NCBI GenBank assembly: GCA_016934415.1
Contig: JAFGSW010000010.1
Coordinates: 1-64,000 of the forward strand
Length of the DNA: 64,000 nucleotides
From: Spirochaetales bacterium
Lineage (GTDB): Bacteria > Spirochaetota > Spirochaetia > SZUA-6 > RPPD01
Direction of reading: 5' to 3'
Shown here: piece by piece, positions 8,662 to 41,809 of the stretch
Numbering within the stretch: position 1 is the first letter of the stretch
Layout: every line of letters starts with the position of its first letter
Notes under the pieces: model-generated
Database searches by the model: none
What the model saw: the letters and a program-made list of their open reading frames with translations, nothing else
Told to the model about the DNA's origin: nothing
Made by a program: the position numbers and the translations under genes

Positions 8662-8665
8662 TGCC

Positions 8666-25289: not shown

Positions 25290-26722
25290 ACAAAGGCTTT
25301 CTTTTCCCGGCGGTATGCGTTATGCTGTGCTCGGCAGTCATAATGGATTCGTGTTCTACAAGCGGCGCCCAAATCGCCTTTACTCCCCCCGCGTACGACG
25401 CTCCCCTGCCCCTGAATCCTTTCAAAGGTTGGGTGGCCTGGGGGAAAAGCCCGTATTACGAACGATACAGCCAACCCAGCAGCATGATCTACGCCCGCGT
25501 GTTCTGGGCGGACGTTGAACCGAATAAAAACCGGTTCGAATGGGAAAATTTCGAGCGCGACTGGAACTTTGATAAGGCGGTCGGGACCAAGAAGATCATC
25601 TTGCGCGTGGTGCTCGACAATCCCGGAGAGCACCCGCCCGGCGCCGATAAGGACATCCCGGAATGGCTGTATGAAGAAATGCGGGGCGGCGGCGCGTTCT
25701 ACCGCACGACGGGTTCTCCGGACGGCGATATCGGGGACGGCTTTTCGCCGGATTACACCAATCCCGTCCTGATGCGCGAACACAAACGATTCATCGCCGC
25801 GTTGGGCCGCCGCTACAATGGCGACGCCAGGATCGCGTTCATTGAAATCGGTTCGCTGGGACATTGGGGCGAATGGCATACCTGGCCCGCGGGAACAGGG
25901 GAGTTCCCGCCCTATCCGACCGCCAAGCTCTACATCAAGCACTATGCGGAGGCCTTTCCGGACAAGCTGTTCCTGCTTCGCCGGCCGCTTGAGTATCAAC
26001 TCGACCACCCGCAGGTGGGCCTTTTCAACGACGTCATCGGAGACGGCACCCCCTGGGGCACGCCCGCCTGGCTTACCATGATCGCCTCGGGGTATAAAAG
26101 CGAATGGGACAGGAACGCCCACCCCCCCCTCGCCTCCGATTGGTGGCACACCGCCCCATCGGGCGGTGAGTTGGCCAGCCACGCGGACGGGGTTCTCCAT
26201 TGGCTGCAGGACGACAACTTCAAGGTCACCCTGGATCAAATCAGGGATTCGCATACCTCATGGATAGGGCCCAGCTCTCCAGGAAAAATGCTCGACTCCG
26301 GGAAATGCCAGGCCCGCATCGACGAGCTGGTGAAGACCATGGGATACCGCTTCGTCATTGCCAGGATCGCGCACAATTCATGGGTCGAAGCGGGAGGAAG
26401 CTTGGGCGTCGCCCTTGAGATCGACAATCAAGGGACGGCCCCCTTCTATTACAACTGGCCCCTGGAGATCAGCCTGATCAAGAATAACCGGGTCGCGGTG
26501 TTCTACCGTCTGAAACAGGTCGATATACGGCGCTGGCTGCCGGGGAAGAGGGAAGTCAAAGCGGCGGTGAGGATACCGGGCGAGCTGGGGAGCGGCCAGT
26601 ACGATATCGGGATCGCGATCATAGATCCCGCCGCCAACAAACCGGCCGTCGATTTCGCCGTCGACAGAAGCCTGCGCCGGGCGGACGGAAGATTCGTCAT
26701 GGGCCGGGTTGAAATCAGGTAG
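25286..26722 (+). CDS. DUF4832-type secreted lipoprotein, glycosidase-like fold
   Basis: A 478-residue exported protein. The leader ends with MDSCSTS, a lipobox-like site with Cys near 23. The N-terminal part resembles a (beta/alpha)8 glycosidase: NPFKGWVAWG, VFWADVEPNKNRFEW, IILRVVLDNPGEH and FIEIGSLGHWGEWHTWP are typical of the DUF4874/DUF4832 pair. The C-terminal beta domain starts around residue 370. A GSLGHWGEWH Glu could be catalytic, but activity is unproven. The ATG overlaps the transporter stop by four bases. Functionally it fits better with the polysaccharide genes that follow than with metal transport. Confidence 0.7.
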   Translation: MNKGFLFPAVCVMLCSAVIMDSCSTSGAQIAFTPPAYDAPLPLNPFKGWVAWGKSPYYERYSQPSSMIYARVFWADVEPNKNRFEWENFERDWNFDKAVGTKKIILRVVLDNPGEHPPGADKDIPEWLYEEMRGGGAFYRTTGSPDGDIGDGFSPDYTNPVLMREHKRFIAALGRRYNGDARIAFIEIGSLGHWGEWHTWPAGTGEFPPYPTAKLYIKHYAEAFPDKLFLLRRPLEYQLDHPQVGLFNDVIGDGTPWGTPAWLTMIASGYKSEWDRNAHPPLASDWWHTAPSGGELASHADGVLHWLQDDNFKVTLDQIRDSHTSWIGPSSPGKMLDSGKCQARIDELVKTMGYRFVIARIAHNSWVEAGGSLGVALEIDNQGTAPFYYNWPLEISLIKNNRVAVFYRLKQVDIRRWLPGKREVKAAVRIPGELGSGQYDIGIAIIDPAANKPAVDFAVDRSLRRADGRFVMGRVEIR

Positions 26723-26845: not shown

Positions 26846-28360
26846 CTATTGCTCGACCGCCCCCCGGTCAATCCTCCCGCCCTGTGTTCGTGGTTGTCCG
26901 TAAAAATCCGTATCTCCCTGTCCTTCAGTCTGAAGCCCCGTATTATGCGCGGGCGAGTTCGGCCGGAGATAACATCCGCCCTCCGATTCCCGGGGAGGGC
27001 TGACAAACAGAGGGTCGCCGTACACGGAGTGAATATCCAGGCCGGTCGTGGTCCGGTAACCATGAAACTGAGAGTACTCCCTCCCATTGACAATGAAGGA
27101 AGACGGATATTGATCGTAACCGTAGACATAATAAAGATTATAATCCAGGTCATTACGGGAAATGCCGATCGCGGTATCATTACTCAGCAACACCACTTCC
27201 CCGGCTTTATTCGGCTTGCCCGAGACAATGTTGTTTACTATGAGATTATTGCTCGTATGCTGCACTATAATCTCGCCGTTCGCTTCCACCCTGTTATTTT
27301 CATAGACGGTATTATTGATCACCATGCAGTTTCTCACCGTGCCCTGATCTCCCGCGGAAGGCGGCCCGAGGCTGATGCCGACCTTGTCGTTGTGATACAC
27401 AAGATTGTTGCGGACGATAATGTTTTCCACAAGGGCGCCGACTTGTTCCGCGCCGATTTCCATCCCCATGTCGCATTCGAAGACTCTATTCCGCTCAAGC
27501 ACGATGTTTTTCGCGCCGTCGACATAGATGCCGGCGCCCCAGCCTCCCCCGTAGTTCGCTTTCGCTCGATAGACAATGTTCTCATTGCATATGCCGTCGC
27601 GCACAACCTCGCGGCTGAGCCATTTTTCACCGCCGATCATGTCGATGCCGATATTGTTGACATCATGAATGATATTGGCGGTTATTTGAAACTTTCTAAC
27701 ATTGCCGTTCAATGTCAATGCTTCGCTGTGCGCCGGATCGCAATGAAAAATCTCATTCCCTTGAATGAGAATATCGCTGATGGGATCACCGTCCGTCCCG
27801 TATGCGGAAATACCCATGGCGTCCGAACCCCGTATTTCGTAAATTTTGTTGTTCAGAATTCGAATATGGCGGCCTGAGCCGTACACCCGAATCCCGGCGC
27901 CGTCATGCACCCTCGCATTGGCGATTTCAAATCCTTTGATCGTGATGAAATTTTTCCCACGCATGAAAATAATGCAATCGCCGACGGTGTTGGGAGGCTG
28001 TCCGCTTTGGGAACCGTCAATGACGACCTTGTGACCGGGAAAGGGTTGAAAAGTGATGGGGCCGTCCGCCTCGTTTCCGGAAACCTGAATGACGATTTTC
28101 TCATAATAGCGCCCTTCCTTGGCATACACCACGCCGCCGGGCGTTGCACAACCCGCGGCGTGCTGGATTGTGCGCCAGGGCCTGTCTTCAGTACCCGGAT
28201 TTGAATCATTTCCCCGGGGTGAGATATAATATGAATTATGAACGGGCAAAGGATTTCCCGGCGCATCGGGAATATTGACGACGTTATCCCGTATCATTTT
28301 ATTGCAGGAAAAAAACAGCATGCTTGAAAGAAGAACTACTATTGCGCGGGCGCCTATCAT
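26846..28360 (-). CDS. right-handed beta-helix lipoprotein
   Basis: A 504-residue lipoprotein (lipobox FFSC, Cys 19). After YYISPRGNDSNPGTEDRPW, the usual DUF1565-like entry, it runs through repeated Asn/Val/Ile ladders such as ILNNKIYEIRG, ILIQGNEIFHCD, VENIIVRNNLVY and MVINNTVYENN. This is a classic PbH1 right-handed parallel beta-helix. Such folds include pectate lyases, alginate epimerases and lyases. No catalytic residues can be assigned here. It is divergent from the PelA-like operon and so probably acts on the same polymer. The ATG has AGGAG six bases upstream. Confidence 0.8.
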   Translation of the reverse strand: MIGARAIVVLLSSMLFFSCNKMIRDNVVNIPDAPGNPLPVHNSYYISPRGNDSNPGTEDRPWRTIQHAAGCATPGGVVYAKEGRYYEKIVIQVSGNEADGPITFQPFPGHKVVIDGSQSGQPPNTVGDCIIFMRGKNFITIKGFEIANARVHDGAGIRVYGSGRHIRILNNKIYEIRGSDAMGISAYGTDGDPISDILIQGNEIFHCDPAHSEALTLNGNVRKFQITANIIHDVNNIGIDMIGGEKWLSREVVRDGICNENIVYRAKANYGGGWGAGIYVDGAKNIVLERNRVFECDMGMEIGAEQVGALVENIIVRNNLVYHNDKVGISLGPPSAGDQGTVRNCMVINNTVYENNRVEANGEIIVQHTSNNLIVNNIVSGKPNKAGEVVLLSNDTAIGISRNDLDYNLYYVYGYDQYPSSFIVNGREYSQFHGYRTTTGLDIHSVYGDPLFVSPPRESEGGCYLRPNSPAHNTGLQTEGQGDTDFYGQPRTQGGRIDRGAVEQ

Positions 28361-28508: not shown

Positions 28509-28537
28509 TTGTTTTTTAATATTAACAGTGATATGAT
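28509..28537 (+). promoter_or_regulatory. candidate promoter of the PelA-like operon
   Basis: TTGTTT (28509-28514), a 17-base spacer and TATGAT (28532-28537) lie about 56 bases ahead of the PelA-like start. The flanking sequence is AT-rich. Expected transcription start is near 28544. Confidence 0.55.
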
Positions 28538-28593
28538 GAGTACCGCTCCGATGATGCGCGCTGAAAATATTCTTTTTTCGTGGTAATCTGCAA

Positions 28594-31548
28594 GTGACGT
28601 TAAAATTGAAAATTGCACTATTCCAAATTTTATTACTCTCCTGCTTTGCGCTCCACAATCTCTCGGCCCAGGAACAGAGAGTACTGTTGCTGTATAAGGA
28701 GCGTGACACCTACCATAAGGAATCGATCGACTACGTGGGAAAAGCCGCGCGTCAGGCGGGCTACCAGTGGGACAGTCGGGACGTGGAGAAGCTGCTGACC
28801 GGCAGGGAGAAGGTCGATTTCTCGCGCTATCGGGGAATCATCACCTGCTACCTGAGCACCAAAATGATCGGGGCCGAACACTATACGCGATTTCTTATCG
28901 ACCAGATGGAAGCGGGGCGCAAAATCATCATTATTGGAAGCTATGGGGCCTATCAGGGCATGATTCCCCGAGCCGACGGGACCTTCCTCGAATGGAACGA
29001 AAGCACGATCGCCATCAACACCTTTTTCCGGCCCTTCGGCCTGGAGTTCCTCTTCGGCTGGACGAACGCGAACAAAAAATTGCGCATCACCCGCATCGAT
29101 CCGGCCATGGCGGAATACCAGATTCGTCTCTCGCAGAGGGACCTCCACTATTACCAGTATTTCAAAAGCGTCAATCCGGCCAATAAAGTCTATCTCGAGC
29201 TGGAACGAACCGATATCCTTGATTCAAAAAGCGCCGCCATCGTCCACACTCCGTTCGGAGGAATGGTGCTGGAGGACTACATCAGGGTCTGGGACAAGCG
29301 GCGCGGGCAAATGAAACAACGGGTCAACCTCGTCCGCTTCATCAAGGAAGGGCTCCAGGGGAAATCGCCGCCGGTGCCCACGTATAACCTGAAAACCCAC
29401 CGTCAGCTGATCGAAGAAAATCCGATTCCCCCTCTGCCCCCGGCGCGGAAAATCGACATCACGCGGGACGAGGTGAAACGCCGCCTCCTGGTGCTCTATA
29501 AAAAAAGTGAAGCGCCGTCATTGGAAGAGCATCCGCTTTTCGACCGCGCTGGCATCGCGCTCAATTACCTCGGCCTTATATGCGATTACCGCGCGGTGGA
29601 GGACGGGCTCCCCGCGAATCGCGAGATGGAAAAATACCGGGGCATCGTTACCTGGCATACGACTCCGTTCATGGTTCACGCGCGCCGATACAACGACTGG
29701 ATGCTGCATCAGATCAAAGCCGGCGTGAAGGCCGTCATTATTGAAAATTACGGGGCCTATTGCGATCAAGACACCCTGGTGGAGGCTCCGAACGCGGCGC
29801 CCGTGTTCGCCGCCCTGGGAATCAAGCACGAGAAACTCGCCCTCGCCAGGGCGGAATATCTCCCCTCCGTCATCACCCTCGACAAGCGCATGATCGGATT
29901 CGAGTACCAGCCGAACCTCGATTATCTCGAGTATACCCACAAATATCTCTCGACGGATCCGTCCAACCGCGTCTTTCTCGCCCTGGACGACCGTTACAGC
30001 GGACGGATCGACCTGGTCGTAACGAACAACCGCGGCGGCGTGGCCATGGACAACAGCCCCTTTTATTTTCCCTACAAGGACATGGATCGGATCGAACGCA
30101 TACACAAATCATTGGCCGGAAAATTGCAGTACGAGATAGCCGAGGGCTCGACCATCGGGAAATGGATTGTAAACCCCTATCTCTTTTTTACGGAAGCGCT
30201 GGACCTTCATTTTCCCGTTCCCGATTACACGACGTTGTGCGGATCGCGGATGTTCTACATTCATATTGACGGCGACGCTTTGGAATCCATTTCGCTCATC
30301 GACGGGACCAACTACGCGGGCACGTACGTCCTGGAAAAACATTTCCGGCCGTACAGCGATCTTCCCTTTTCCGCCTCCACCATCAGCCTGCTTCTGGAAA
30401 ACAACGGGAACAAGTACTACAATCCCTTCCTGGAATTGGCGAGGGAAATATACGACTTGCCGAACGTCGAGATCGCCTCCCATACGACGACCCATCCCTT
30501 CAACTGGGTGCGGGGTGATCCCTATATCGTCAACCCCGACTCATACCCGTGGCGGATCGATTACAAGCCCCAGGACTACGTGTACGAGCTGTGGGGCACG
30601 AGACTATTCATCGATACGTACGCGGCCCCGCCGGGGAAAAAATTGAAAATCGTGCTCTGGTCGGGCGAATGCAATCCCAATGCGGCGGCGCTGGATGCGG
30701 CCGCCCGGGCCGGGCTGAAAAACCTGAACGGGGGCGATCCGATTTTCGACAGCGAACATCCCTCGATCGCGGGTCTCTGCCCCCTCTCCATTCCGCAGGG
30801 GAATTTCAGGCAGTACTTCACGTCCGCCCAGAACGATTACATCTATTCGCTCTTTTTAACCGGAGACTGGGGCGGACAAAAGAAAGTCCTCGATCACTAT
30901 CGAAAAACCGAAACCCCCTACCGCATCGTTCCCATGAACCTGTATTACCACTACTACGCGGGCATCAAGTGGGAGAGCATCAACGCCTGCATCACCGTCT
31001 TTAAGTACTTCCGCTCGGGAAACTTTGCGGGCGTGTTCGGCAGCGACTACGTGAAGATCGTCGAAGATTTTTACGCGACCCGCGTCAGGAAAGACGGGGA
31101 CGCCTATCTGTTCGAGAACGACGGGGATGTACGCACCGTCCGTTTCGCCGCGGAGACGTATCCCGACCTGGAAAAATCGAGGGGCGTCATCGGATTCCTG
31201 TGGAAGGACGGCCAGACGTACTTCCATTTGGACGGCGCCAAAAACTACAAGCTCGTTTTTTCCGACACGAAACCGGACCTGCCTTTCCTGCGGCAATCGA
31301 CCATGAAGGCCGGAGAGCTCAAGCGAAGCGGGGACGGAATATCGCTCGCCTGCGAGGGGTTCGGGAAGGGCTATTTCAACTTCGGGGGATTGAGGCCGAA
31401 GAGAGCCTACAGCCTGTCGATCGTCGATCAGAACGAGGCGCCGGTGTTCAAGCGGACCCTGTCCGCCGACGCCGACGGAACCGCGAGCTTCACGACAATG
31501 TTTCCCGCCCCTCCCCGCCGGTACCGACTTCGTCTGGCGGTGAAATGA
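28594..31548 (+). CDS. pelA: PelA-like polysaccharide deacetylase
   Basis: A 984-residue secreted protein. The signal peptide ends at about residue 25. Two homologous alpha/beta domains follow (about 28-265 and 300-520). Both open with an LLxLYK strand and share RYRGI(I/V)T and the pattern I-x-x-Y-GAY. The deacetylase domain starts near 540 with FYIHIDGDAL; its Asp pair at about 558/560 and ASHTTTHPF, giving His 628/632, match the PelA metal site. A beta-rich tail closes the protein. The N-terminal hydrolase domain of Pseudomonas PelA is missing. Expected role: partial N-deacetylation of the exported polymer. The start is GTG with no clear ribosome site. Confidence 0.75.
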   Translation: MTLKLKIALFQILLLSCFALHNLSAQEQRVLLLYKERDTYHKESIDYVGKAARQAGYQWDSRDVEKLLTGREKVDFSRYRGIITCYLSTKMIGAEHYTRFLIDQMEAGRKIIIIGSYGAYQGMIPRADGTFLEWNESTIAINTFFRPFGLEFLFGWTNANKKLRITRIDPAMAEYQIRLSQRDLHYYQYFKSVNPANKVYLELERTDILDSKSAAIVHTPFGGMVLEDYIRVWDKRRGQMKQRVNLVRFIKEGLQGKSPPVPTYNLKTHRQLIEENPIPPLPPARKIDITRDEVKRRLLVLYKKSEAPSLEEHPLFDRAGIALNYLGLICDYRAVEDGLPANREMEKYRGIVTWHTTPFMVHARRYNDWMLHQIKAGVKAVIIENYGAYCDQDTLVEAPNAAPVFAALGIKHEKLALARAEYLPSVITLDKRMIGFEYQPNLDYLEYTHKYLSTDPSNRVFLALDDRYSGRIDLVVTNNRGGVAMDNSPFYFPYKDMDRIERIHKSLAGKLQYEIAEGSTIGKWIVNPYLFFTEALDLHFPVPDYTTLCGSRMFYIHIDGDALESISLIDGTNYAGTYVLEKHFRPYSDLPFSASTISLLLENNGNKYYNPFLELAREIYDLPNVEIASHTTTHPFNWVRGDPYIVNPDSYPWRIDYKPQDYVYELWGTRLFIDTYAAPPGKKLKIVLWSGECNPNAAALDAAARAGLKNLNGGDPIFDSEHPSIAGLCPLSIPQGNFRQYFTSAQNDYIYSLFLTGDWGGQKKVLDHYRKTETPYRIVPMNLYYHYYAGIKWESINACITVFKYFRSGNFAGVFGSDYVKIVEDFYATRVRKDGDAYLFENDGDVRTVRFAAETYPDLEKSRGVIGFLWKDGQTYFHLDGAKNYKLVFSDTKPDLPFLRQSTMKAGELKRSGDGISLACEGFGKGYFNFGGLRPKRAYSLSIVDQNEAPVFKRTLSADADGTASFTTMFPAPPRRYRLRLAVK

Positions 31549-31559
31549 AGGAGAATCGC

Positions 31560-33362
31560 GTGCGGTTTGAGAAAAAGTTTCGGTTGTGTTTATTCGCATT
31601 TCTCATGACCGTTGTCGCGTCCCCCTCCCTGTCGGCCGACGAAAAGCAAAAAGACGTCATCGACAAGGAAATAAAGCAAGCCCTCTTGCTCTTCGACATG
31701 GACAGGGGCGAAGCGGCGATTTACAGGCTCCAACAGCTGCAGGAGCGATATCCGAACGACGCTTCCATTTTACAGCGATTGTGCGAAATGGCGATCGCCG
31801 GCAAGAACTGGGCCTATGCGATCGTGGTGCTGGAAAAGCTCGCCGCCGTGAAGCCGAAGGATGTCGGCGTCCGCGTCATCCTGATGGACGTGTACAAGGC
31901 CTACCAGATGCCCATTCAGGAAATCAAGACCGCCAAGGACATCATCGACATCGATCCCGGCGACGTCGACACGTTGGAGCGGTTGGCCAAGCTCTATCAC
32001 GGGGAAAACATGTTCCTGGAAGAAGAGCGGGTGAGGCTCATGCTCGACGGCCTCAAACCTTTCGACCTCGACAATCTTGAAAAGCTGGCCGTCTTCTACG
32101 CGGAGGAGGGCAACGTTCGCGAGGAGACCGTCATCCGGGAACGGATTCATTCCCTCGCTCCCCACGATATCGCCAACAGCACGCGGCTCATCTACCTGTA
32201 CAATGAAGCCAAGGACATGTATCAAAAATTGCTTCTCTTGCGGGAAGTCCTCGCGGAGGTGAAAGACCCGTCGGGTGAGCTTGCGGCGGAATACAACGCG
32301 ACCTACTCGGCGTATAAAAAATCCCTCCTCATCTTCGATGTCATCGGTTCAACGACCAGCGCCCAGTACAAGGATATAGGCGACGATCGTATCATCACCA
32401 TGGTGGAGAATTTCGGTTATTCGTACACGTCTCTCGAGAGCGTCTCCACCGTCAAGCTCAATATCATCTACACCCATTTGTTCGATATCCCCAGAGATCC
32501 GGAGCAGGACCAACCCTATCACGTGGGGAACATCACGCTGCAAACGAGCTATAACACCGCCACCCCGGACCAGAAGGTCAATTTTTCCGCGGTGGTCGGC
32601 TTTGAAAACATACTGATCTACGACGCCGGCAGCAGCACCCCCTATCCGTATTTTTCGGAAGACAAACTGACGGCCGTCTGGAACGATACGTATAAAATTT
32701 TCCCCACCGCCGGCCTGGACTTTGACGCAGAAATCGCGCGTTATTTTTATCTTCACGCCTCCTGCCACAGCGTTCTGTTCGAAGAGATCGAATCCTATCG
32801 CAGTCCCCTGAGGGACAATGACGCCGGGGCCGGGCTCCGCCTTCTCCTGCCCGACGGCACATCGATCATGGGCAATTACGAGCTGCACTGGGTCTGGAAC
32901 AGGCTTCTCCGCTCCCGGGTGACGGCCGAGCTCGCGTTCGTCATTTTTTCCTCGGACGCGGTATACGACTACCGCGGCGGCCGCGTCGGCTACGTCAAAG
33001 AAATACCGGGCACGCAGCTTGAATTCAGCTACGAATTCGAATTCATGACCGCCACGAACGACATTCCTTTTTATACCGAGGGGGAATTCACTCACACGCA
33101 CCTCGTCGACCTTATCTTCAAGCAACGACTGAGCGAAACGGTGGCCTTCAACATTGCGGCCGAGGCGAAATACTCAAGCACCAATGAATATACGGTGGGG
33201 GGAAGATTCTCTCTCTTCGATCTTCATTCCGAAAGTAACGTCAAATTTTCGCTTGACCTCTTTTACGAATATCAAAACGTTTTGCCCATACCGGATGCGT
33301 CCGCAGACAATCCCGTCCATGAGGCCGGGCTCAGTTTTTTCATCAGTTTCAATCTCACCTAG
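31560..33362 (+). CDS. PelB-like TPR plus outer-membrane barrel protein
   Basis: A protein of about 600 residues. A signal peptide ends SLSA-D. TPR-like helix pairs span about 25-230, for example EAAIYRLQQLQERYPND and YAIVVLEKLAAVKPKD. A beta-strand-rich C-terminal half ends in FFISFNLT. This is the PelB layout (TPR scaffold plus export porin) at half the usual length of about 1,190 residues. I prefer the GTG at 31560, which has AAGGAG six bases upstream. The ATG at 31545 overlapping the PelA stop is the alternative. Likely function: bring the deacetylase to the pore and export the polymer. Confidence 0.7.
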   Translation: MRFEKKFRLCLFAFLMTVVASPSLSADEKQKDVIDKEIKQALLLFDMDRGEAAIYRLQQLQERYPNDASILQRLCEMAIAGKNWAYAIVVLEKLAAVKPKDVGVRVILMDVYKAYQMPIQEIKTAKDIIDIDPGDVDTLERLAKLYHGENMFLEEERVRLMLDGLKPFDLDNLEKLAVFYAEEGNVREETVIRERIHSLAPHDIANSTRLIYLYNEAKDMYQKLLLLREVLAEVKDPSGELAAEYNATYSAYKKSLLIFDVIGSTTSAQYKDIGDDRIITMVENFGYSYTSLESVSTVKLNIIYTHLFDIPRDPEQDQPYHVGNITLQTSYNTATPDQKVNFSAVVGFENILIYDAGSSTPYPYFSEDKLTAVWNDTYKIFPTAGLDFDAEIARYFYLHASCHSVLFEEIESYRSPLRDNDAGAGLRLLLPDGTSIMGNYELHWVWNRLLRSRVTAELAFVIFSSDAVYDYRGGRVGYVKEIPGTQLEFSYEFEFMTATNDIPFYTEGEFTHTHLVDLIFKQRLSETVAFNIAAEAKYSSTNEYTVGGRFSLFDLHSESNVKFSLDLFYEYQNVLPIPDASADNPVHEAGLSFFISFNLT

Positions 33363-33387
33363 AGTGCCGCTGACACAAGGGGGCCGC

Positions 33388-35394
33388 GTGGTCATACAAA
33401 GAGCGCTTTTTGTTTTTCTTTTCACCTGCCTGTTCTCCGCCGCGTTCGCCGACGGGCCCGATTGGCTCCGGACCGCGCGCATCGCCGGCTTCGGCATGCA
33501 TGAAACGATCAAAGACGTCGATCTGGACGAATTACTCGACGGTTTCGCGGCGCAGCACGTCAACGTGCTCGAATGCGACACGTCGCTCTCGGATTACCTG
33601 GACGTTGAGGGTTTCGAATACCAATGCGAGTTCATCAAGCGGATCGTCAAGCGCGCCCACGCGCACGGCCTCAAAGTTGTCTGGTATTACCCGACGCTGG
33701 AATGCGTCACCCCGGACGGAGAAATCAAGCCGCATTCCATGCAGAAGGACCACCCCGAATGGGTGCAGCGCAACTTCGATCGGAAGACGTACAACTATTT
33801 TTACGGCTCGAAGGCGTTCTGGGTGGAACCCCACGACGAAAGCGCCTGGCTCTGCCCCAACACGTCGTTCGGCGATTTTTATTACAAACGACTCGAAAAG
33901 CTGGCGCACACCGGTCTCGACGGCATCTGGCTCGACGTGCCTCTCCGCAACACCATCGTCGGGGAATGGACCTGCTCGTGTCCCTCTTGCATCGCCAAAT
34001 TCAAGGCGGAAACGGGGATGGAGTTTCCCACGGCGGTCGACTTTCACAACCCTTCATTCAGGCGCTGGATCAAATGGCGGCATGAAAACTTGGCCGATTT
34101 TTTGGAAGGCGCCGCAAAAACGGTTCATCGCATCGATCCGAAGATGCGGATCATCGTGGAAGTCGTCAGCACGGACCATTTGATCAACACCCGAGAAGGC
34201 CTGGATGCGACTTTTTTCAGCGACGATCTGGACATCGTGTGGGAAGTCGACGCGATCAGCGACACCACGAGCATGAAGGACGCGAAAGTCGAAGACTGGT
34301 TGTGCCTGTTCACCGCCTACCGTTTTTGCCGGGGTATCTCCCGCGACAGGAGCAGTTGGGCCTTTTCGTACGGGTTCGCCGATGATGACGCGCAGCTCGC
34401 CATGGCATCGGTGTTGGCGGCGCAGTGCAATCCCTATGAGACGAGAATCCCGGAAATGTGCACCTCGGTGGGGAAAAAATTCCGCTCCACGATGTTCGGC
34501 TGGATCGAGGCTTATTCGGACGAGATCTATCATTCGCGATCGAAGGCGGACATCGCCCTCCTCTATTCGCCGTCGACCAGAGACCTCATCGACGGCGATC
34601 TCGACGGCGGATTCTATATTTCGGAGGCTCCCCCCTCGCCCGCTTACCGATGGTGGATAAAGGCGCCCGAAATGAGCCTTCTCTACTCCAACTACATGTG
34701 CGAGTACCGGGGCTGGGCCCTCATGCTCATCAAGGATCACGTCCCGTTCAACGTCTTCTCCCTCAATCAGATGACGGCGGCCGATCTCGCCCCGCACCGC
34801 ACTCTCGTCCTTCCCCGCGCCGTCTGCCTCACCACGGCCCAGACGGAGTTGCTGCTGAAATACGTCGCCCGGGGCGGGAACCTGATCGTGACCGGAAACG
34901 ACAGCGGCACGTTTGAATCGATAGACAAGCAGCTCGCTCAAAGTCAATGGCGCGAGCTCAGGAAAAACGGCGCGCCCTCCATTTCCCACGGCAAGGGCAG
35001 GATCGTTTTTTTAAGCGAACTGCCGGGCAAGGATTTTTTAAATAGGTTGTACCGCGAAAGAAATCCCCGCATCCATCCGGTCCTGGAAGAGACCGGCATC
35101 ACGCCGTGGATCGACGGCCGGGCGGAAGCGTACATCCAAGCCTACCAATTGGGCAAAAAAACGATCTGCCAGCTGGTGAATTTCGGTTGGGTGTCGAATA
35201 AAGACAAAAAAGCCGTGCCGGCAAAAATAAATCTTTCCATCCCCTGGCCGCACGGTCAAGAAGTAAAAAGCGTGATTTTCACGAGTCCGGAAAAGAGCGG
35301 CGGGCGGCCGGTTCAATTCACCCAAAGCGGTGACGCCATCCAGTGCGAAGTCGAAGTATTGATTAACGGCTTGTTGATCATCGAGCGGAAATAA
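33388..35394 (+). CDS. secreted glycoside hydrolase with trimerisation-like domain
   Basis: A 668-residue exported enzyme candidate (signal peptide ending AAFA-D). Residues about 30-330 look like a TIM-barrel glycosidase: VNVLECDTSL, HGLKVVWYYP, CPNTSFGDFYYKRL, GLDGIWLDVP and RIIVEVVSTDH. Residues about 390-540 fit a beta-galactosidase trimerisation-type Rossmann domain (LVLPRAVCLTTAQTELL, RGGNLIVTGNDSG). A beta sandwich ends the protein. In canonical Pel systems the hydrolase is fused to PelA. Here this stand-alone enzyme in the same operon may fill that role. The start is GTG 33388 with AAGGGGG just upstream. Confidence 0.7.
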   Translation: MVIQRALFVFLFTCLFSAAFADGPDWLRTARIAGFGMHETIKDVDLDELLDGFAAQHVNVLECDTSLSDYLDVEGFEYQCEFIKRIVKRAHAHGLKVVWYYPTLECVTPDGEIKPHSMQKDHPEWVQRNFDRKTYNYFYGSKAFWVEPHDESAWLCPNTSFGDFYYKRLEKLAHTGLDGIWLDVPLRNTIVGEWTCSCPSCIAKFKAETGMEFPTAVDFHNPSFRRWIKWRHENLADFLEGAAKTVHRIDPKMRIIVEVVSTDHLINTREGLDATFFSDDLDIVWEVDAISDTTSMKDAKVEDWLCLFTAYRFCRGISRDRSSWAFSYGFADDDAQLAMASVLAAQCNPYETRIPEMCTSVGKKFRSTMFGWIEAYSDEIYHSRSKADIALLYSPSTRDLIDGDLDGGFYISEAPPSPAYRWWIKAPEMSLLYSNYMCEYRGWALMLIKDHVPFNVFSLNQMTAADLAPHRTLVLPRAVCLTTAQTELLLKYVARGGNLIVTGNDSGTFESIDKQLAQSQWRELRKNGAPSISHGKGRIVFLSELPGKDFLNRLYRERNPRIHPVLEETGITPWIDGRAEAYIQAYQLGKKTICQLVNFGWVSNKDKKAVPAKINLSIPWPHGQEVKSVIFTSPEKSGGRPVQFTQSGDAIQCEVEVLINGLLIIERK

Positions 35395-35446
35395 ACGATC
35401 ACCGGCAGAGCCGGAATAAGGAAACAGATCATCGTAGGGAGATTGA

Positions 35447-36439
35447 GTGAGGAAAACGGGCGCAACGCTTTTTTTTCTTATTGTTCTATTTTTCGTTTCC
35501 ACCGTCCGCCCCCAATCAGACCGGCTGGACTCGTCGGTTGAGCTCGCCATCCCCTTGACGGGCAGTCTCCAAAATCCCTCGTTTTCACCGGATAATCGTT
35601 CGATCGTGTTCACCCGGTTTCTCCGCGGATATAACGAGGGTCCGTCGGAAATCTACACCTACGATCTTCTTTCAAAAAAGCTTCGCAGAATCGTCTCAAA
35701 CGACAGCGACAATGTCGTCATGCCCGGCCACGCCTGGCGAAACGGCACAATCTGCTTCGCCTCCGACTACCATGGACCGACGGAAGACATTTTTACCGTC
35801 ACGGAGGACGGTGCGAACGTTGTGCAGGTGACGGAGAATCGGGAACAGGGCTCATACTATATCGAACCGGTCTTTCATCCCGCCCGGTCCGATATTATGG
35901 CTTTTGAAATCGGTTTTCTCGACGGCGGGAAACCGCATACGCTCGCCGTCGTCGAACGGGACCGCGGCGACCGGGTCACCCGCCTCCTCAACGACCCCGA
36001 ACACGATTACCGGCAGCCGAATTGGTCCTGGGACGGAACGCGCATCGTCTTCCAACGCGCCGACCGCGGCGGGGACAACTGGCGCATCTACACGGCCGCG
36101 GTTGATTTTTCGGGGAACAGGCCGTCGCTCAAGAAGATTCGCCGGCTCCCGCAACCCGAGGCGGGCAATACCGACAATGCCTGGTATTCGAACGACCTCT
36201 CCATCCTGTCGTCGAGCGATGACGGCGGGGCATACTCAAGCATTTACGCGTTCGGCGTGAACGGCCGGGCGCCGCTCCGCATTTCCCATTCGCTCCAATT
36301 CGAGGACGGGGCCCCGGCGTGCTCCTCGGACGGACGGCAGGTTGTCTTTGAAGCTCACACCGCCCGCGATCCGTCCAGTCCCACGAGGATTCGCCTGATT
36401 CGCCTGTCCCGGGAGGAATTGAGGTTCTTGTCCCAATAG
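35447..36439 (+). CDS. TolB-like beta-propeller protein (paralogue 1)
   Basis: A 330-residue secreted protein with an N-terminal hydrophobic leader. Repeats of the WD40-like/TolB type are clear: NPSFSPDNRSIVFTRF, QPNWSWDGTRIVFQR and APACSSDGRQVVFEA. It is the last gene of the plus-strand Pel arm. It resembles the lipoprotein at 42109-43086 over its whole length, so the two are paralogues lying on either side of pelDEFG. Binding of a peptidoglycan-linked or outer-membrane partner is the known role of TolB; the function here is not known. The start is GTG 35447 after AGGGAG. Confidence 0.75.
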   Translation: MRKTGATLFFLIVLFFVSTVRPQSDRLDSSVELAIPLTGSLQNPSFSPDNRSIVFTRFLRGYNEGPSEIYTYDLLSKKLRRIVSNDSDNVVMPGHAWRNGTICFASDYHGPTEDIFTVTEDGANVVQVTENREQGSYYIEPVFHPARSDIMAFEIGFLDGGKPHTLAVVERDRGDRVTRLLNDPEHDYRQPNWSWDGTRIVFQRADRGGDNWRIYTAAVDFSGNRPSLKKIRRLPQPEAGNTDNAWYSNDLSILSSSDDGGAYSSIYAFGVNGRAPLRISHSLQFEDGAPACSSDGRQVVFEAHTARDPSSPTRIRLIRLSREELRFLSQ

Positions 36440-36565
36440 GAGTTGGAGGTGTTATCCGGTGTCCCGCGGCTCTGCTTGGAAAAAAGTCCGCCGAAGGGGG
36501 TTCGCCTTCACTCAGCCCAAGCCCACATCAGTATTGGCCGAAGAGCCCGGCCTCCGCAGACAGCA

Positions 36566-36598
36566 GGTTGTTGAAAAAGCTCAATTTTTTCAACAACC
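36566..36598. terminator. hairpin between the converging Pel arms
   Basis: GGTTGTTGAAAAA (36566-36578) pairs exactly with TTTTTCAACAACC (36586-36598) around a 7-base loop. It lies two bases past the pelG stop codon and can end transcription from both directions. The core is shared with the hairpins at 61209-61242 and 61353-61397. Confidence 0.7.
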
Positions 36599-36600
36599 AG

Positions 36601-38073
36601 CTACGGATTGATCAACGGTTTTTCGTCCTTGACGTAATATCTGCCGAAAGACCCCGTCTTGTGTAAATAGATCCGCCGCTCCATCCTGGTGGCGTAGGGC
36701 AATTCCCGCTTGGTAAAAGTATAGAAAATGGCGTTGCGCAGATAAAACCTCAACAAACGGGTGGCGTAGATGAAACACACGACGGAAGCGATGGTCATTC
36801 CGAGGCCATTGAACTGCTCCCCCGCTTGAAGGAAAACGAGCGTCAGCACGAGGTTGATGACGAAAAAAAAGCCGTAGACCTTGATCGATTCCTTCCGTAA
36901 ATCGAAATACAACAGCAGCACGCAGACGATGAGCATCATCATTTGAAAGAACCTTCCGATGATCACGACGGCCAGGAGCGTATCGACGCTCTCCGACATG
37001 TTGAACAGCTTCAAAATATTCCGCGAAAGGAGAATGGCGCCGAGGGTGACGATCGTCTGCACGAGAATGAGCATCCGGAGGGACGAGTCGACGCACTTAA
37101 TCAACTTGACGCCGGCGATTTTAATCTTCTCGAGGTTTCCCCAATAGCCTTTCCTCATCATGCGGCTGAAAAAACCGTAGTACGCTTTGTAGAAATCCGT
37201 CTCGATGACGATGAAAAAGATGGCGATAATCGGCGTCGAGAGGAGAAAGGCCAGGTAAAAAACGTCATCGTAATGGGGGTTGTAAAACAATATCGAATTG
37301 AACTGGATGCCGGACGGTCCGTACCACATGATGACCTTGTCCACCCACATGCCGGCGTAGAGCAGGAATCCGCTCGCCAGCAGATCGGAATAATACAGTT
37401 TCGACGTGATATCCTTCACGTTCAGCTTGGCCGGAAACCCGAACACCCTGATCGTCTTGATGAACAGGATGGCGGCGATGTACACCTGACCCAAAATAAA
37501 GCCCACGTAGAGGCCCAGGAAACTGAAAAAATAACCGAGGACGTATCCCAAGAGGAGGCTCGAACCGGCCCCGATCAGGTAATGCTTGATGAATTTCAGA
37601 AAACTGTCGCTGGCGCTGACGTAATTAATGAGCACCCAGGCGACGGTGATCGCGATGAAAAAGGTATACGTCAGGACTTTGACGTCGAACGGAATGTCGA
37701 TGACGATAAGCAAGGGAATCGACACAATGGAGACGGCGAAGAGCGCGGCGATGAGATTGCACATGATGACGTTGGGCAAGGCCTCCCGCTGCTTTTCAAA
37801 CATCTTGTCCGCGAAAATGCGCGTGAAGAAAAGCTGCAGCGTGCCGGTCACCATGATGGTGAGGAAATAAACGTTGACTAAAAGTATTTTAAACAACTGG
37901 CGCGAGGGAAGATTGATGATGAACGTCGAATAGACGGACAGCGTTCCCAGAGAGGTGACGATAATGAGCCAGGGGCCGGAGGTGAGGATGATCGCGTAAA
38001 TGAATCCCCGGATGACGGACGTGTACGATTCATTCGAGACGATTCGCTGCAGTTTGAACGCGATGCCGGCCAT
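36601..38073 (-). CDS. pelG: Pel polysaccharide transporter PelG
   Basis: A 490-residue inner-membrane protein with about twelve helices (Pseudomonas PelG is about 456). The N-terminus MAGIAFKLQRIVSNESYTSV followed by SGPWLIIV is characteristic of PelG, a member of the MOP flippase superfamily. It moves the growing Pel chain across the inner membrane together with PelD, PelE and PelF. It is the last gene of the pelDEFG arm, two bases after pelF. A hairpin follows immediately. Confidence 0.92.
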   Translation of the reverse strand: MAGIAFKLQRIVSNESYTSVIRGFIYAIILTSGPWLIIVTSLGTLSVYSTFIINLPSRQLFKILLVNVYFLTIMVTGTLQLFFTRIFADKMFEKQREALPNVIMCNLIAALFAVSIVSIPLLIVIDIPFDVKVLTYTFFIAITVAWVLINYVSASDSFLKFIKHYLIGAGSSLLLGYVLGYFFSFLGLYVGFILGQVYIAAILFIKTIRVFGFPAKLNVKDITSKLYYSDLLASGFLLYAGMWVDKVIMWYGPSGIQFNSILFYNPHYDDVFYLAFLLSTPIIAIFFIVIETDFYKAYYGFFSRMMRKGYWGNLEKIKIAGVKLIKCVDSSLRMLILVQTIVTLGAILLSRNILKLFNMSESVDTLLAVVIIGRFFQMMMLIVCVLLLYFDLRKESIKVYGFFFVINLVLTLVFLQAGEQFNGLGMTIASVVCFIYATRLLRFYLRNAIFYTFTKRELPYATRMERRIYLHKTGSFGRYYVKDEKPLINP

Positions 38074-38075
38074 AT

Positions 38076-39566
38076 TCAGCTCTTGACGTACTTGAGATAC
38101 ACGGATTTATAGAGTTGGATGATCCTCTCCTGTTTATAGTATTTATCGATCCGCTCGATCCCTATTCTCTTCATGTTTTCCCTCAAGGTATCATCTTTCA
38201 GTATTCTGATACAAGACTCGGCGAATCGGTCGACATCGCCGATGGGAACGACGAATCCGCATTTCCCCAAGGCCTTGTCCTCCTCCGTCCGTCCGTAGAG
38301 CAGTTCGCTGCACGCCCCGACGTCGGTGGTCACGCAGGCCACTCCCACGCACATCGCCTCCAGAATGGTCAGGGGCTGCCCTTCGCTGATGCTGGTGAGC
38401 GCCATGATATCGAGCGTGGTGTACGTTTTATCCTTCACCAGGTTTTTCGGGCCGGTAAAAATGCACTTTTCCTCCAATCCCAGAATTTCCACCAGCTCGA
38501 GGCATTCCTGAACGTAATCCGCGTCCTCCTCGAACGGGCCGATGACGTGGAACAGGCAATTCGGCACCCAGTTGGTCACGATCTTGCAGACCTTGATGAA
38601 CATCTTGATGTCCTTGATCGGGACGACCCGTCCCACCAGGCCGACGATGAAGGTGGAGGGATCCGGCTTCGGAGTCCCCCGCTGCGTTCCGTACTGCTCG
38701 ACCCGCACGCCGTTGGGAATGATGGTGATGCGGTCGAAATTCGCGCCGAATTCGACCGCCAGTTTCTTGTTGCCCTCGAAGAGGGTGATGATATCATCGC
38801 ACAGATCGTAGGTCGCCTGCCCCAGCCGCCTGAAGTGATCCATCCATAAATCCTTCAGCATCCCCTGCGACTTCTGGATGTACACCCGGCTGCGTTCGTC
38901 TTTTTGAATCCAGGTCGCCTGGTTGATTTCAATCCTCCGCTCGTTCGTGTAGATCCCGTGCTCGGAAAGGACGAGGGGACGATTATATTTGATTTTCGCG
39001 ATCACGCCGACCAATCCGGCGTAGCCGGTGCTCGTCGCGTGATACAGGCGCGCGGGGGGAATTTCCATGTGCAGGGTCTGGATCAAAATGAGCAGCATCG
39101 ACCGCCAGGTCCAGAAAAAATCGAAAAATGAGCACATCCCCTTCTTTTGCTCGTACAGCTTTTCCGTGATTTTATGCGATTCTTCGGAGTAGAGCAGCTC
39201 GTAACTGCTCACCACCCGCTGTTTCGGATCGATCAGCATCGGCAGCAGTTCGGCGAAATGCGAGCCGTAGCTTTCATCCTTGCCGGATAAAAAATCGTAG
39301 AATTTCCGCCAAAAAACGTCCTTTTTGTGCTCCATGGGACACGGCTGCTTGGGAATAATCGCCGTGTAAAGAAAGACTTCCAGCAGGTTTTTCACATTGG
39401 GAGGCAGGACGTATTTGTATTTCTTCGGCTTTCCGATTTTCGGTGAGAGCGCCAGGATGGAAAAGTTGATGTCGGGCATGCTCTCCAGGAGATTCTGGAC
39501 CCAAACCGACACCCCCCCGCCGATGAAAGGATACGTACCTTCTAAAATAAAGCAGACATCATCCAT
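38076..39566 (-). CDS. pelF: Pel polysaccharide glycosyltransferase PelF
   Basis: A 496-residue cytoplasmic GT-B glycosyltransferase of family GT4 that polymerises the Pel chain from UDP-sugars. The N-terminal VCFILEGTYPFIGGGVSVWV is the PelF signature. Further motifs are LSEHGIYTNERRIE near 205, IPNGVRVEQYG near 290, GLVGRVVPIKDIK near 315 and the EX7E element EGQPLTILE near 395. The length matches known PelF (about 507). It is in one operon with pelD, pelE and pelG. The donor is presumably UDP-GlcNAc or UDP-GalNAc, which the galE product could help to supply. Confidence 0.95.
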   Translation of the reverse strand: MDDVCFILEGTYPFIGGGVSVWVQNLLESMPDINFSILALSPKIGKPKKYKYVLPPNVKNLLEVFLYTAIIPKQPCPMEHKKDVFWRKFYDFLSGKDESYGSHFAELLPMLIDPKQRVVSSYELLYSEESHKITEKLYEQKKGMCSFFDFFWTWRSMLLILIQTLHMEIPPARLYHATSTGYAGLVGVIAKIKYNRPLVLSEHGIYTNERRIEINQATWIQKDERSRVYIQKSQGMLKDLWMDHFRRLGQATYDLCDDIITLFEGNKKLAVEFGANFDRITIIPNGVRVEQYGTQRGTPKPDPSTFIVGLVGRVVPIKDIKMFIKVCKIVTNWVPNCLFHVIGPFEEDADYVQECLELVEILGLEEKCIFTGPKNLVKDKTYTTLDIMALTSISEGQPLTILEAMCVGVACVTTDVGACSELLYGRTEEDKALGKCGFVVPIGDVDRFAESCIRILKDDTLRENMKRIGIERIDKYYKQERIIQLYKSVYLKYVKS

Positions 39567-39581
39567 GTAATCGCCTTTTTT

Positions 39582-40763
39582 TTACACTGCGGATAAAGCG
39601 CCGAGCGGTTCTTCGAGCGGATGAACGGTCAAATCCTTGATATCGTTCCTGATTTGGATCAAGGCGGGAATATCGCGCAAGGCGAAAAAGGCGCGCGTTT
39701 TGAACGACCGGGCGTGCTCGAAGTTTTCATCGCCCTCCTCGACTTCAAAACAATACCTGATGCACAAATCGTAATTCCTGTTGTAATACAGCGCGGGGAT
39801 GAGGCGGTAAATGATGTCGCGCTTGTGCTCCGGGAATTTCTTCAGGAGCTCTTCATATATCTTGATCGCCTTGGCCCTGTACGATTCCACGATGGCGGGA
39901 TGCTCGATATCCGCCTCGGCGAAGAGCGAATAAAGATCCGCCAACTCCTTCCGTTTTTGGTAATCGGGCGTTTTCATCCCCTTGAGTTCCTTCAGGATCG
40001 CCGTAATGCGCGAAAAATACATGTCGGCGATTTTCTTTATCGCTTCATTGGCGTAATACTGAACTTCCTTCGAGGTATCTTTCATGGCGGAGACGAGATT
40101 TTGCCTGGTCGTCTGCGAATCCACCTCCTCCATGGCGAGAATGGCCGCCACCCGGACGTTTTTTTCCTCGTCGGTCAGCCCGTCGATGAGGGGGCTGACG
40201 TTGGAAAGCTCCTCCAGGTTGATTTGAATGTCCTGCTTCTCCTCCTTCAGCTCCTCCTCACCCTCCTCCTGGTCGATATGATATAATTTCGACGGATCGG
40301 TCTCCGGGTTGACGATGGTTCGGTACAGGAAGAGAATGGTGATGATTCCCAAAATGCTGAAACACGCGAAAAAGAAGATCGTGAAAAACACCAGCATCTT
40401 TTTTTTATCCGGATCGATTTCCTTCAGCGCGTTTATTCTCAGGAAAAGGATGGGCGCGAACGCGATGCGTGAGAAAAAGATAACCGCCTGCCATACTTCG
40501 CCGTGAACGAACGTGACGATGCAAACCAGACCGGCCGCATCGACGGCCCCGCAGATCAGGAAAAAAACGTATAATGAAATCCCCTTCCGTAAGTCCGCCA
40601 GCACCGCGCGTACCGCACCCAGCGGACGCTTCGCGGACTCCGGAATCTCCTCGAGCTCGGAAAGCTCCTCGAGTTCCGGACTCTCGTCTGCCTCCAGAAG
40701 CCCCGCAGGCTCCGGAGGCAACGGAAACTCCGGACGCTCTATGATCTTTTTGTAAAGTCCCAT
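39582..40763 (-). CDS. pelE: PelE-like inner-membrane scaffold with HEAT/TPR repeats
   Basis: A 393-residue protein. A Glu-rich N-terminal stretch with near-repeats (ELEELSELEEIPE) precedes three to four membrane helices (about 50-150). After an acidic segment, a helical repeat domain follows: HEAT-like in DEEKNVRVAAILAMEEV and KEVQYYANEAIKKIAD, then TPR-like to the end. Pseudomonas PelE (about 329 residues) also combines membrane helices with TPRs and recruits PelF. Position between pelD and pelF supports the name. The acidic N-terminus and HEAT repeats are differences from the classical protein. Confidence 0.75.
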   Translation of the reverse strand: MGLYKKIIERPEFPLPPEPAGLLEADESPELEELSELEEIPESAKRPLGAVRAVLADLRKGISLYVFFLICGAVDAAGLVCIVTFVHGEVWQAVIFFSRIAFAPILFLRINALKEIDPDKKKMLVFFTIFFFACFSILGIITILFLYRTIVNPETDPSKLYHIDQEEGEEELKEEKQDIQINLEELSNVSPLIDGLTDEEKNVRVAAILAMEEVDSQTTRQNLVSAMKDTSKEVQYYANEAIKKIADMYFSRITAILKELKGMKTPDYQKRKELADLYSLFAEADIEHPAIVESYRAKAIKIYEELLKKFPEHKRDIIYRLIPALYYNRNYDLCIRYCFEVEEGDENFEHARSFKTRAFFALRDIPALIQIRNDIKDLTVHPLEEPLGALSAV

Positions 40764-40789
40764 ATCATCGATCCCACTTTCGATTAAAG

Positions 40790-41809
40790 TCAGATTTTCA
40801 ATTCTTCCTTACCCACGACCCATCGATACGTCGAATTCGCCTTTCCGTATTTGTAGTAGAGAATCTCGCTCACCCAGCGGCATAGATTCCTGATGGTGCG
40901 AAGCTTGTTTTCATTGAAAAGCATAAAATCGATTTCCCTGATGATGACCAGGCCGAAAAAACTCCGGGAGGCTTGATGGAAAATCGGCCCGATAAAGTAC
41001 GGGACCGCATGATCGTGATTCTCCTTCGACACCATTTTAAAATAATGGAATTTGAAGGTCTTCACCGATTGGGCGATCAGTTCCTTGTTGTTGATTAAAA
41101 GCATGATTCCCTCGCCGCGCGCTTCCTCGGGAAAATTGCAGCGCAGGGATTTGTCATTAATTGAGTACACGTAAAAGACGGCTCCCCGAATGATGATCTT
41201 GAGAATATTGTAGAGCGAGCCGAATATCTGCTCGATATCGTCCGTAAAAAGATTCTTCGTCTTGTCGAAGACGATATTGAAACTGTGCTCGGCGTTGATC
41301 AGCTGGTGTGAAAGATCCTCGTTGATCTTGAGAATCTGCTTTATCTCCTTGTCCTTTTTGCTTATCTTCTCATTTTGCTCAGCGATCAACGCCTCCGAGG
41401 TCTTGATCTTTTTTTTATCGATGCTCACGAGCAATCCCAGGGTGAGGCCGAAGAGAATGAAGGCCAGGGGCTGATAGCACTCCCGCCACAAAGCGGAGAC
41501 GTGGAAACCGCTTTGAAATATTTTCTCGAAAAAGATCCGAGGCCGCGTCAGGTCGTCGACGGAGATTCCAGCGATGCGCGCCAGGTACAGACAAAAGTAG
41601 ACGACGCCGGCGGAAATGATCGCGGGGAGGCTTCTCCGCAGCCCGTAGCGAAGCACGATCACCAATATGTAAAAGTAAAAGGGATGGATCTCAAGACCGA
41701 TGAAGCCGGCGTTTCCGATGATAAAGCTGAAAACGAGAAGAGCGATTAAAAAGACGACCGTTTCCGCCAAGAATAGATTTTTTTTGGCCCATATCTTTGG
41801 CAACCTCAA
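40790..41809 (-). CDS. pelD: PelD-like membrane protein lacking the GGDEF domain
   Basis: A 339-residue protein. Four membrane helices (about 12-130) are followed by a coiled coil (about 132-175) and a GAF domain (about 180-325), exactly the first part of PelD. Known PelD (about 455) continues with a degenerate GGDEF domain whose RxxD site binds c-di-GMP and switches on Pel synthesis. Here the protein stops at GKEELKI, so no such receptor exists. TTG at 41809 is supported as the start by AGGAGA about seven bases upstream. First gene of the pelDEFG arm. Confidence 0.85.
   Translation of the reverse strand: MRLPKIWAKKNLFLAETVVFLIALLVFSFIIGNAGFIGLEIHPFYFYILVIVLRYGLRRSLPAIISAGVVYFCLYLARIAGISVDDLTRPRIFFEKIFQSGFHVSALWRECYQPLAFILFGLTLGLLVSIDKKKIKTSEALIAEQNEKISKKDKEIKQILKINEDLSHQLINAEHSFNIVFDKTKNLFTDDIEQIFGSLYNILKIIIRGAVFYVYSINDKSLRCNFPEEARGEGIMLLINNKELIAQSVKTFKFHYFKMVSKENHDHAVPYFIGPIFHQASRSFFGLVIIREIDFMLFNENKLRTIRNLCRWVSEILYYKYGKANSTYRWVVGKEELKI

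What the first reader, a model, noticed from the sequence alone, without database searches (positions are those of the whole stretch)
28509..41809. Split, convergent Pel exopolysaccharide locus with reshuffled domains
pelDEFG lie together on the minus strand, while a PelA-like deacetylase, a PelB-like export protein, a separate glycosidase and a propeller lie on the plus strand. The two arms meet at one hairpin. No PelC-like gene is seen. Known Pel operons are single pelABCDEFG or related orders, so this two-arm arrangement with a stand-alone hydrolase and an added propeller looks like a distinct type.
Basis: partly seen in the sequence, partly recalled or inferred. Interest (0 to 1): 0.85.

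Follow-up and report, generated by a model that had tools for sequence, protein, structure and literature searches.

The report
PelC-less Pel exopolysaccharide locus variant
This is an intact-looking but rearranged version of the bacterial Pel biofilm-sugar locus, with a rebuilt deacetylase, a short outer-membrane exporter and its own sugar-cutting enzyme in place of the usual one; the same set of genes recurs in unrelated bacterial phyla, so it is a real variant of a known system for which no earlier description was found.

Summary
pelG, pelF, pelE and pelD lie on the minus strand (36601-41809). A true PelA-type deacetylase, a TPR plus 16-strand barrel exporter and a glycosidase lie on the plus strand (28594-35394). 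The strongest new evidence is recurrence outside this phylum. PelA*-PelB*-GH stand in the same order on one strand in Deltaproteobacteria, Methylococcales and Armatimonadetes MAGs. In the deltaproteobacterium they are followed on that strand by pelD-E-F-G and the same beta-helix protein. So the two arms belong to one system, and the convergent layout is a rearrangement, not the defining trait. What defines the variant: PelA without its GH166 hydrolase but with a second copy of its mixed alpha/beta domain; a short PelB; a GH42-like, non-GH166 glycosidase; PelD reduced to TM plus GAF, without the c-di-GMP-binding GGDEF domain; and no PelC. No GH114/GH166 or PelC was detected anywhere in the genome. 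The propeller is not conserved, and the "hairpin" is one of 32 copies of a dispersed palindrome. Verdict: new variant of the Pel system, most likely making a partly deacetylated GalNAc polymer. Polymer identity, GH activity and regulation are inferred.

The parts
28594..31548 (+). PelA* (984 aa): signal peptide, two tandem mixed alpha/beta (DUF2194/ThuA-like) domains (about 27-260 and 290-490), CE21-type deacetylase domain (about 513-800), beta-rich domain; no GH166 hydrolase
   Evidence: phmmer to PelA 9cgy E=3e-59; domain-by-domain hhalign; catalytic residues conserved
31560..33362 (+). PelB* (600 aa): signal peptide, about 7 TPRs (27-256), 16-stranded outer-membrane beta-barrel (260-599)
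   Evidence: AF2 model mean pLDDT 74.8; conserved next to PelA* in three other phyla
33388..35394 (+). Secreted glycoside hydrolase: TIM barrel (GHL6-like) + GH42M/ThuA-like domain + beta-sandwich; not GH166/GH114
   Evidence: Pfam GHL6 sub-threshold in window, above cut-off in L122; Foldseek to GH42/GH164/alpha-L-fucosidase; no profile match to the PelA hydrolase
35447..36439 (+). PD40/TolB-like beta-propeller; in the plus-strand run but not conserved in the related loci
   Evidence: Pfam PF07676; absent from related loci
36565..36599 (.). Palindromic hairpin between the converging arms, probable bidirectional terminator; one of 32 copies in the genome
36601..38073 (-). PelG, inner-membrane exporter
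   Evidence: PF16933 E=3e-85
38076..39566 (-). PelF, GT4 glycosyltransferase
   Evidence: NF038011 E=3.6e-134
39582..40763 (-). PelE-like: transmembrane helices + HEAT/TPR-like repeats
   Evidence: hhalign to PelE family 98.1%; HEAT_2
40790..41809 (-). PelD-like (339 aa): TM + GAF only, lacks the C-terminal degenerate GGDEF c-di-GMP receptor domain
   Evidence: hhalign covers PelD 19-307 of 455
26846..28360 (-). Right-handed beta-helix lipoprotein; its homologue follows pelG directly in the deltaproteobacterial locus
   Evidence: phmmer E=2e-59, 31% identity to L220:1374-3020
25286..26722 (+). DUF4832-domain protein; same family as Pel-degrading SIR_1591 and the DUF4832 accessory gene of Gram-positive pel clusters; association here inferred
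   Evidence: PF16116 E=2.3e-25; PMC12345266, PMC7112168
22685..23665 (+). GalE-like UDP-sugar 4-epimerase, possible UDP-GalNAc supply; 44% identical to the galE inside the deltaproteobacterial locus; association inferred
   Evidence: Epimerase E=3.9e-52; blastp

Best explanation
A synthase-dependent exopolysaccharide locus of the Pel type in a new composition. Proposed working: PelF polymerises UDP-GalNAc (supplied by a GalE-type epimerase) and the polymer crosses the inner membrane through PelG with PelD and PelE. In the periplasm PelA* removes acetyl groups with its CE21-type active site. Its doubled mixed alpha/beta domain probably docks it on the short TPR arm of PelB*, which passes the polymer through a 16-strand barrel without a PelC ring. 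The GH42-like secreted glycosidase takes the trimming or release role of the lost GH166 domain. PelD senses through GAF and does not bind c-di-GMP through a GGDEF I-site. Shown here: gene identities, domain composition, catalytic residues, genome-wide absence of detectable PelC and GH114/166, and recurrence of the module in other phyla. Inferred: polymer identity, GH substrate, docking role, regulation.
For: PelF, PelG, PelD and PelE identities. PelA* deacetylase is 34% identical to solved PelA over about 400 residues, with H526, D528, D530, H600, H604 and H761 equivalents present and E723 replaced by D. Both N-terminal domains are homologous to each other (98.9%); the second matches the PelA mixed alpha/beta domain at 98.8%, and literature assigns that domain to PelB contact (PMC12022489). 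PelB* is TPR plus 16 strands, as described for PelB/BcsC/PgaA (PMC12141448). In Deltaproteobacteria MAG OFTM73 the order is PelA*-PelB*-GH-(galE, opposite)-FHA/GAF-PelD-PelE-PelF-PelG-beta-helix. PelA*-PelB*-GH also recur in Methylococcales and Armatimonadetes MAGs. PelC profile silent in the own genome, positive in the control genome. No GH114/166 in either genome that has the full set. PelD ends before the GGDEF domain here, in L122 and in L023, whereas ordinary spirochaete PelDs of about 475 aa extend further.
Against: PelB* shows no sequence homology to PelB outside the TPRs, and Foldseek returned only TPR hits at the top, so its barrel could be another exporter family. The AF2 model of the GH is weak (pLDDT 60.8). 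Only one other genome shows both arms together. The Armatimonadetes genome has no detectable PelG and housekeeping genes follow its GH. The product has never been analysed.
Confidence: 0.8

Rival explanations
1. The plus-strand arm (PelA*-PelB*-GH) serves a different polymer or synthase, and its neighbourhood to pelDEFG here is accidental.
For: Arms are on opposite strands with a terminator-like palindrome between them. The Armatimonadetes genome has PelA*-PelB*-GH but no detectable PelG. L023, the nearest PelF relative, has a different, larger TPR-barrel partner.
Against: In the deltaproteobacterium all seven genes plus the beta-helix lie together on one strand, and the deacetylase is of the Pel-specific CE21 type.
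Confidence: 0.1
2. It makes a chemically different, Pel-related polymer: PelF-type synthesis with another sugar or modification, for which the beta-helix and GH42-like enzymes are specific.
For: The non-GH166 glycosidase and the beta-helix protein are present in both full loci; the PelF is outside both the canonical and the ordinary spirochaete clades. The literature warns that divergent operons may give different products (PMC7112194).
Against: CE21 catalytic residues are kept; galE lies nearby in both full loci.
Confidence: 0.25
3. Ordinary vertical spirochaete pel locus that merely diverged.
For: Two-arm pel loci with a TPR-barrel protein, some with a DUF2194 protein, are common in the phylum.
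Against: Full-length PelA* and GH were found in no other sampled genome of the phylum (only the own genome among 393 at 1e-20 and among 296 at 1e-15) but in other phyla; PelF falls outside the 32-sequence spirochaete clade.
Confidence: 0.05

Closest known systems
Pseudomonas aeruginosa pelABCDEFG
   Same: PelD, E, F, G core; CE21 deacetylase with conserved active site; TPR plus 16-strand barrel exporter.
   Different: No PelC; no GH166 domain in PelA, mixed alpha/beta domain doubled instead; short PelB (600 against 1193 aa); PelD without GGDEF; separate GH42-like glycosidase; two convergent arms.
Gram-positive pelDEADAFG (Bacillus cereus, streptococci; PMC7112168, PMC13254593, PMC12345266)
   Same: PelA without hydrolase domain; separate hydrolase; galE and DUF4832 accessory genes; GGDEF-less PelD in streptococci.
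   Different: This one has an outer-membrane exporter and a CE21-type deacetylase (B. cereus PelADA is CE26); its PelD has no SDR domain. TM-GAF-only PelD is described only for S. thermophilus JIM8232, attributed to transposon damage.
DUF2194 pel clusters of Fusobacterium nucleatum and Spirochaetota
   Same: Mixed alpha/beta domain and a CE4-like deacetylase beside pelF/pelG; two-arm layout common in spirochaetes.
   Different: The spirochaete DUF2194 proteins (800-860 aa) have a deacetylase that does not align with the window's CE21 domain, and lie with a 1200-1600 aa TPR-barrel protein in a divergent arm. The Fusobacterium cluster is known to me only from locus tags in an RNA-seq table.
Rearranged pel operons of the EPS operon survey (PMC7112194)
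   Same: Rearrangement of pelA and pelB relative to the core, pelB fission, locus gain and loss already noted.
   Different: No description found in the text read of a doubled PelA domain, GH42-like partner, beta-helix partner or this taxon set; its supplementary tables could not be read.

Membership tests
Pel-type synthase-dependent EPS locus (PelDEFG core) | PelF glycosyltransferase | tested here: met
   NF038011 448.5 bits, cut-off 100
Pel-type synthase-dependent EPS locus (PelDEFG core) | PelG exporter | tested here: met
   PF16933 287.3 bits, cut-off 29
Pel-type synthase-dependent EPS locus (PelDEFG core) | PelD (TM + GAF) and PelE | tested here: met
   hhalign 98.3% and 98.1% to Pseudomonas families
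Pel-type synthase-dependent EPS locus (PelDEFG core) | GalNAc polymer de-N-acetylase | tested here: met
   Sequence and catalytic residues of CE21; activity not tested
Canonical Gram-negative pelABCDEFG | PelA with GH166 hydrolase domain | tested here: not met
   N-terminal part is a second mixed alpha/beta domain; no GH114/166 in genome
Canonical Gram-negative pelABCDEFG | PelC lipoprotein | tested here: not met
   8-sequence PelC profile: no hit in own genome at E<=1; positive control 3e-64. Genome is 93% complete
Canonical Gram-negative pelABCDEFG | PelB: TPR scaffold plus 16-strand barrel | tested here: inconclusive
   Architecture met; no sequence homology to the PelB barrel; Foldseek dominated by TPR
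Canonical Gram-negative pelABCDEFG | PelD GGDEF domain with c-di-GMP I-site | tested here: not met
   Match ends at PelD residue 307; protein ends after GAF
Canonical Gram-negative pelABCDEFG | Single operon | tested here: not met
   Convergent arms in the window; one strand in L122 apart from galE
Pel polysaccharide producers | Product is partly deacetylated alpha-1,4-GalNAc | not testable with these tools
   Needs chemistry
GH166/GH114 Pel hydrolases | Sequence match of the stand-alone GH (33388-35394) | tested here: not met
   Pfam gives GHL6/GH42M, not PF03537; hhalign to PelA hydrolase 7%

The most novel reading that the evidence does not exclude
A horizontally spread, PelC-free and c-di-GMP-domain-free Pel machine in which the GH166 hydrolase has been displaced by a non-homologous GH42-like glycosidase family acting on Pel-type galactosaminoglycan, and PelA docks to a short PelB through a doubled domain.
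Probability: 0.4. Interest if true: 0.68.

Novelty: new variant of a known kind. Interest (0 to 1): 0.56.

Why it matters
The role of the PelC ring is called puzzling in the PelBC structure paper, because BcsC and PgaA do without such lipoproteins (PMC12141448). A natural Pel locus with a PelB-like exporter and no PelC would show whether the ring is dispensable when the TPR arm is short. The locus also gives a candidate new family of Pel-cutting enzymes, of interest for biofilm dispersal, and a PelD without the c-di-GMP domain in an organism with an outer-membrane exporter, so regulation would have to run through another signal. The deltaproteobacterial FHA/GAF gene next to pelD is a lead for that signal.

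Tried and rejected
Convergent layout as the defining trait: rejected, since the deltaproteobacterial locus is on one strand and spirochaete loci are divergent. Propeller as a component: no homologue in the related loci; L126 has a different, NHL-type propeller after PelB*. Hairpin as a locus-specific element: 32 copies in the genome. GH as a relative of the PelA hydrolase or of the PelA mixed domain: no profile match. Single-protein scan of genome contigs with PelA* found nothing; an alignment with the PelA crystal sequence worked. Phylum-wide search for PelA* at 1e-20 and for GH at 1e-15 found only this genome. Plasmid search with GH: no match. Foldseek with the PelB* model was uninformative for the barrel because TPR hits filled the list. 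My own ORF caller mislabels genes in high-GC loci because of long antisense ORFs; tblastn was used there instead. A first attempt at one Pfam call failed on wrong coordinates and was repeated.
Full report
Setting. The window is the first 64 kb of a 104-kb contig of a 4.06-Mb genome of 102 contigs (93% complete). The sizes of its relatives in the tool's phylum sample suggest Spirochaetota; this is an inference, since names are not given.

The observation. On the minus strand pelG (36601-38073), pelF (38076-39566), pelE-like (39582-40763) and pelD-like (40790-41809) form a tight run. PelG and PelF pass curated cut-offs by a wide margin. PelD and PelE matched no Pel family in Pfam or NCBIfam, but three-member profiles match the Pseudomonas PelD and PelE families at 98% probability. 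On the plus strand lie 28594-31548, 31560-33362, 33388-35394 and 35447-36439.

The 28594 product is PelA. phmmer against all PDB chains gives one hit, PelA 9cgy, E=3e-59, residues 513-905 on PelA 434-834. The residues named in the PelA structure paper as H526, D528, D530, H600, H604 and H761 are all kept; E723 is D (PMC12022489). Upstream of the deacetylase are two copies of one domain: hhalign gives 98.9% between them, and 98.8% between the second copy and the PelA mixed alpha/beta domain. The GH166 hydrolase domain is missing. That paper models the mixed domain in contact with the PelB TPRs, so a doubled domain suggests stronger or different docking; this is inference.

The 31560 product is PelB-like by build: the AF2 model has TPR helices at 27-256 and 16 long strands at 260-599. 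It has no detectable sequence relation to the PelB barrel, and Foldseek listed only TPR proteins at the top, so homology to PelB is unproven.

The 33388 product is a secreted glycosidase with a TIM barrel, a GH42M/ThuA-like middle domain and a C-terminal beta-sandwich. The model is of low confidence (pLDDT 60.8), with TM-scores near 0.3, but Foldseek consistently finds GH42, GH164 and an alpha-L-fucosidase over the full length. Sequence search shows sub-threshold GHL6 and GH42M, and a homologue passes the GHL6 cut-off. It is not GH166/GH114. D183 in the invariant WLDVP, E151 and E286 are candidate catalytic residues because they are invariant across the four homologues; their roles are inferred.

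PelD is cut short. The match to PelD ends at residue 307 of 455, just after GAF, and the ORF ends soon after. The 353-aa and 344-aa PelDs of L122 and L023 are alike, whereas ordinary spirochaete PelDs of about 475 aa continue with a further C-terminal domain resembling a degenerate GGDEF. A TM-GAF-only PelD has been described for S. thermophilus JIM8232 and attributed to a transposon (PMC7112168).

PelC and Pel hydrolase are absent. An eight-sequence PelC profile found nothing in the genome at E<=1 and found PelC in the control genome at 3e-64. Its weak hits in the deltaproteobacterial genome are on other contigs. PF03537 (GH114) found nothing in this genome or in the deltaproteobacterial one. 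Both absences hold only for a 93%-complete assembly and an assembly of unstated completeness.

Recurrence elsewhere. An alignment-guided scan of genome contigs gave PelA* relatives. In Deltaproteobacteria MAG OFTM73 the genes run PelA* (47% identical over its whole length), PelB*, GH, then on the other strand galE, then FHA/GAF, PelD, PelE, PelF, PelG and a beta-helix protein 31% identical to the window's 26846-28360 product. Methylococcales MAG SW_4_3 has PelA*-PelB*-GH up to a contig end and, elsewhere, pel loci of the Pseudomonas type, one of them with PelC. An Armatimonadetes MAG has PelA*-PelB*-GH followed by dnaG and rpoD, with no PelG found in its 1.7 Mb. Eremiobacterota MAGs have PelA*-PelB* without this GH, with what looks like a third mixed domain and, in several, a separate PelA-hydrolase-like gene upstream. 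So three genes keep their order in genomes assigned to four different lineages (three others plus the window), and in one of these the pelDEFG arm follows on the same strand.

Within the phylum. Two-arm pel loci are common, but the second arm is divergent, beginning beside pelD, with a TPR-barrel protein of 1200-1600 aa and sometimes a DUF2194 protein. PelA* at 1e-20 and GH at 1e-15 were found in no other sampled genome. The PelF tree puts the window with L023 (97/93), outside the 32-sequence spirochaete clade (100/100) and near the deltaproteobacterial and Eremiobacterota sequences; deep forks there are weak. Horizontal origin of the set is therefore likely, not proven.

Wider neighbourhood. 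A GalE-like epimerase (22685-23665) is 44% identical to the galE inside the deltaproteobacterial locus. A DUF4832 protein (25286-26722) belongs to the family of S. intermedius SIR_1591, reported as an active glycoside hydrolase that disrupts Pel-dependent aggregates, and of Gram-positive pel accessory genes (PMC12345266; PMC7112168). Both are plausible associates; neither was shown to be linked beyond proximity and family.

The convergent layout is one of at least three layouts. The propeller (35447-36439), paralogous to 42109-43086 (33% identity), was not found in the related loci. The palindrome between the arms is one of 32 in the genome, none in the reversed-pattern control.

Verdict. A new variant of the Pel system, with a mechanism proposed by homology. 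Strong on gene identity and recurrence, moderate on the PelB assignment, and open on product chemistry, GH substrate and regulation.

Noticed in passing
G000:C40 (L042) about 5027-9993: A second, very divergent pelDEFG-like set in the same genome (PelF 25% identical), also with a short PelD of 360 aa.
   Followed up: partly
whole genome, e.g. window 36569-36595, 61362-61388: A near-perfect palindrome TGTTGAAAAA-loop-TTTTTCAACA occurs 32 times in the genome and never in the reversed-pattern control: a dispersed hairpin family, probably bidirectional terminators.
   Followed up: partly
L122:3356-4282 and L122:4572-8282: Upstream of the deltaproteobacterial locus lie a free-standing copy of the PelA* N-terminal domain (308 aa) and a 1236-aa ORF carrying a second GH homologue with a C-terminal extension.
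   Followed up: no
L122:17260-18639: An FHA-FHA-GAF-like protein sits between GH and pelD: possible alternative regulator where PelD lacks the c-di-GMP domain.
   Followed up: no
L040, L087, L094, L103: Spirochaete pel loci with an arm of TPR-barrel protein plus DUF2194 protein; DUF2194 looks like a distant PelA (97.5% hhalign), giving that domain of unknown function a likely role.
   Followed up: partly
window 44596-46668: AlgX-like SGNH protein with a C-terminal F5/8-type domain near the locus; may O-acetylate an exopolysaccharide.
   Followed up: no
L222, L223 (Methylococcales MAG): The genome carrying PelA*-PelB*-GH also holds two pel loci of the Pseudomonas type, one with PelC; several Pel systems side by side.
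   Followed up: partly
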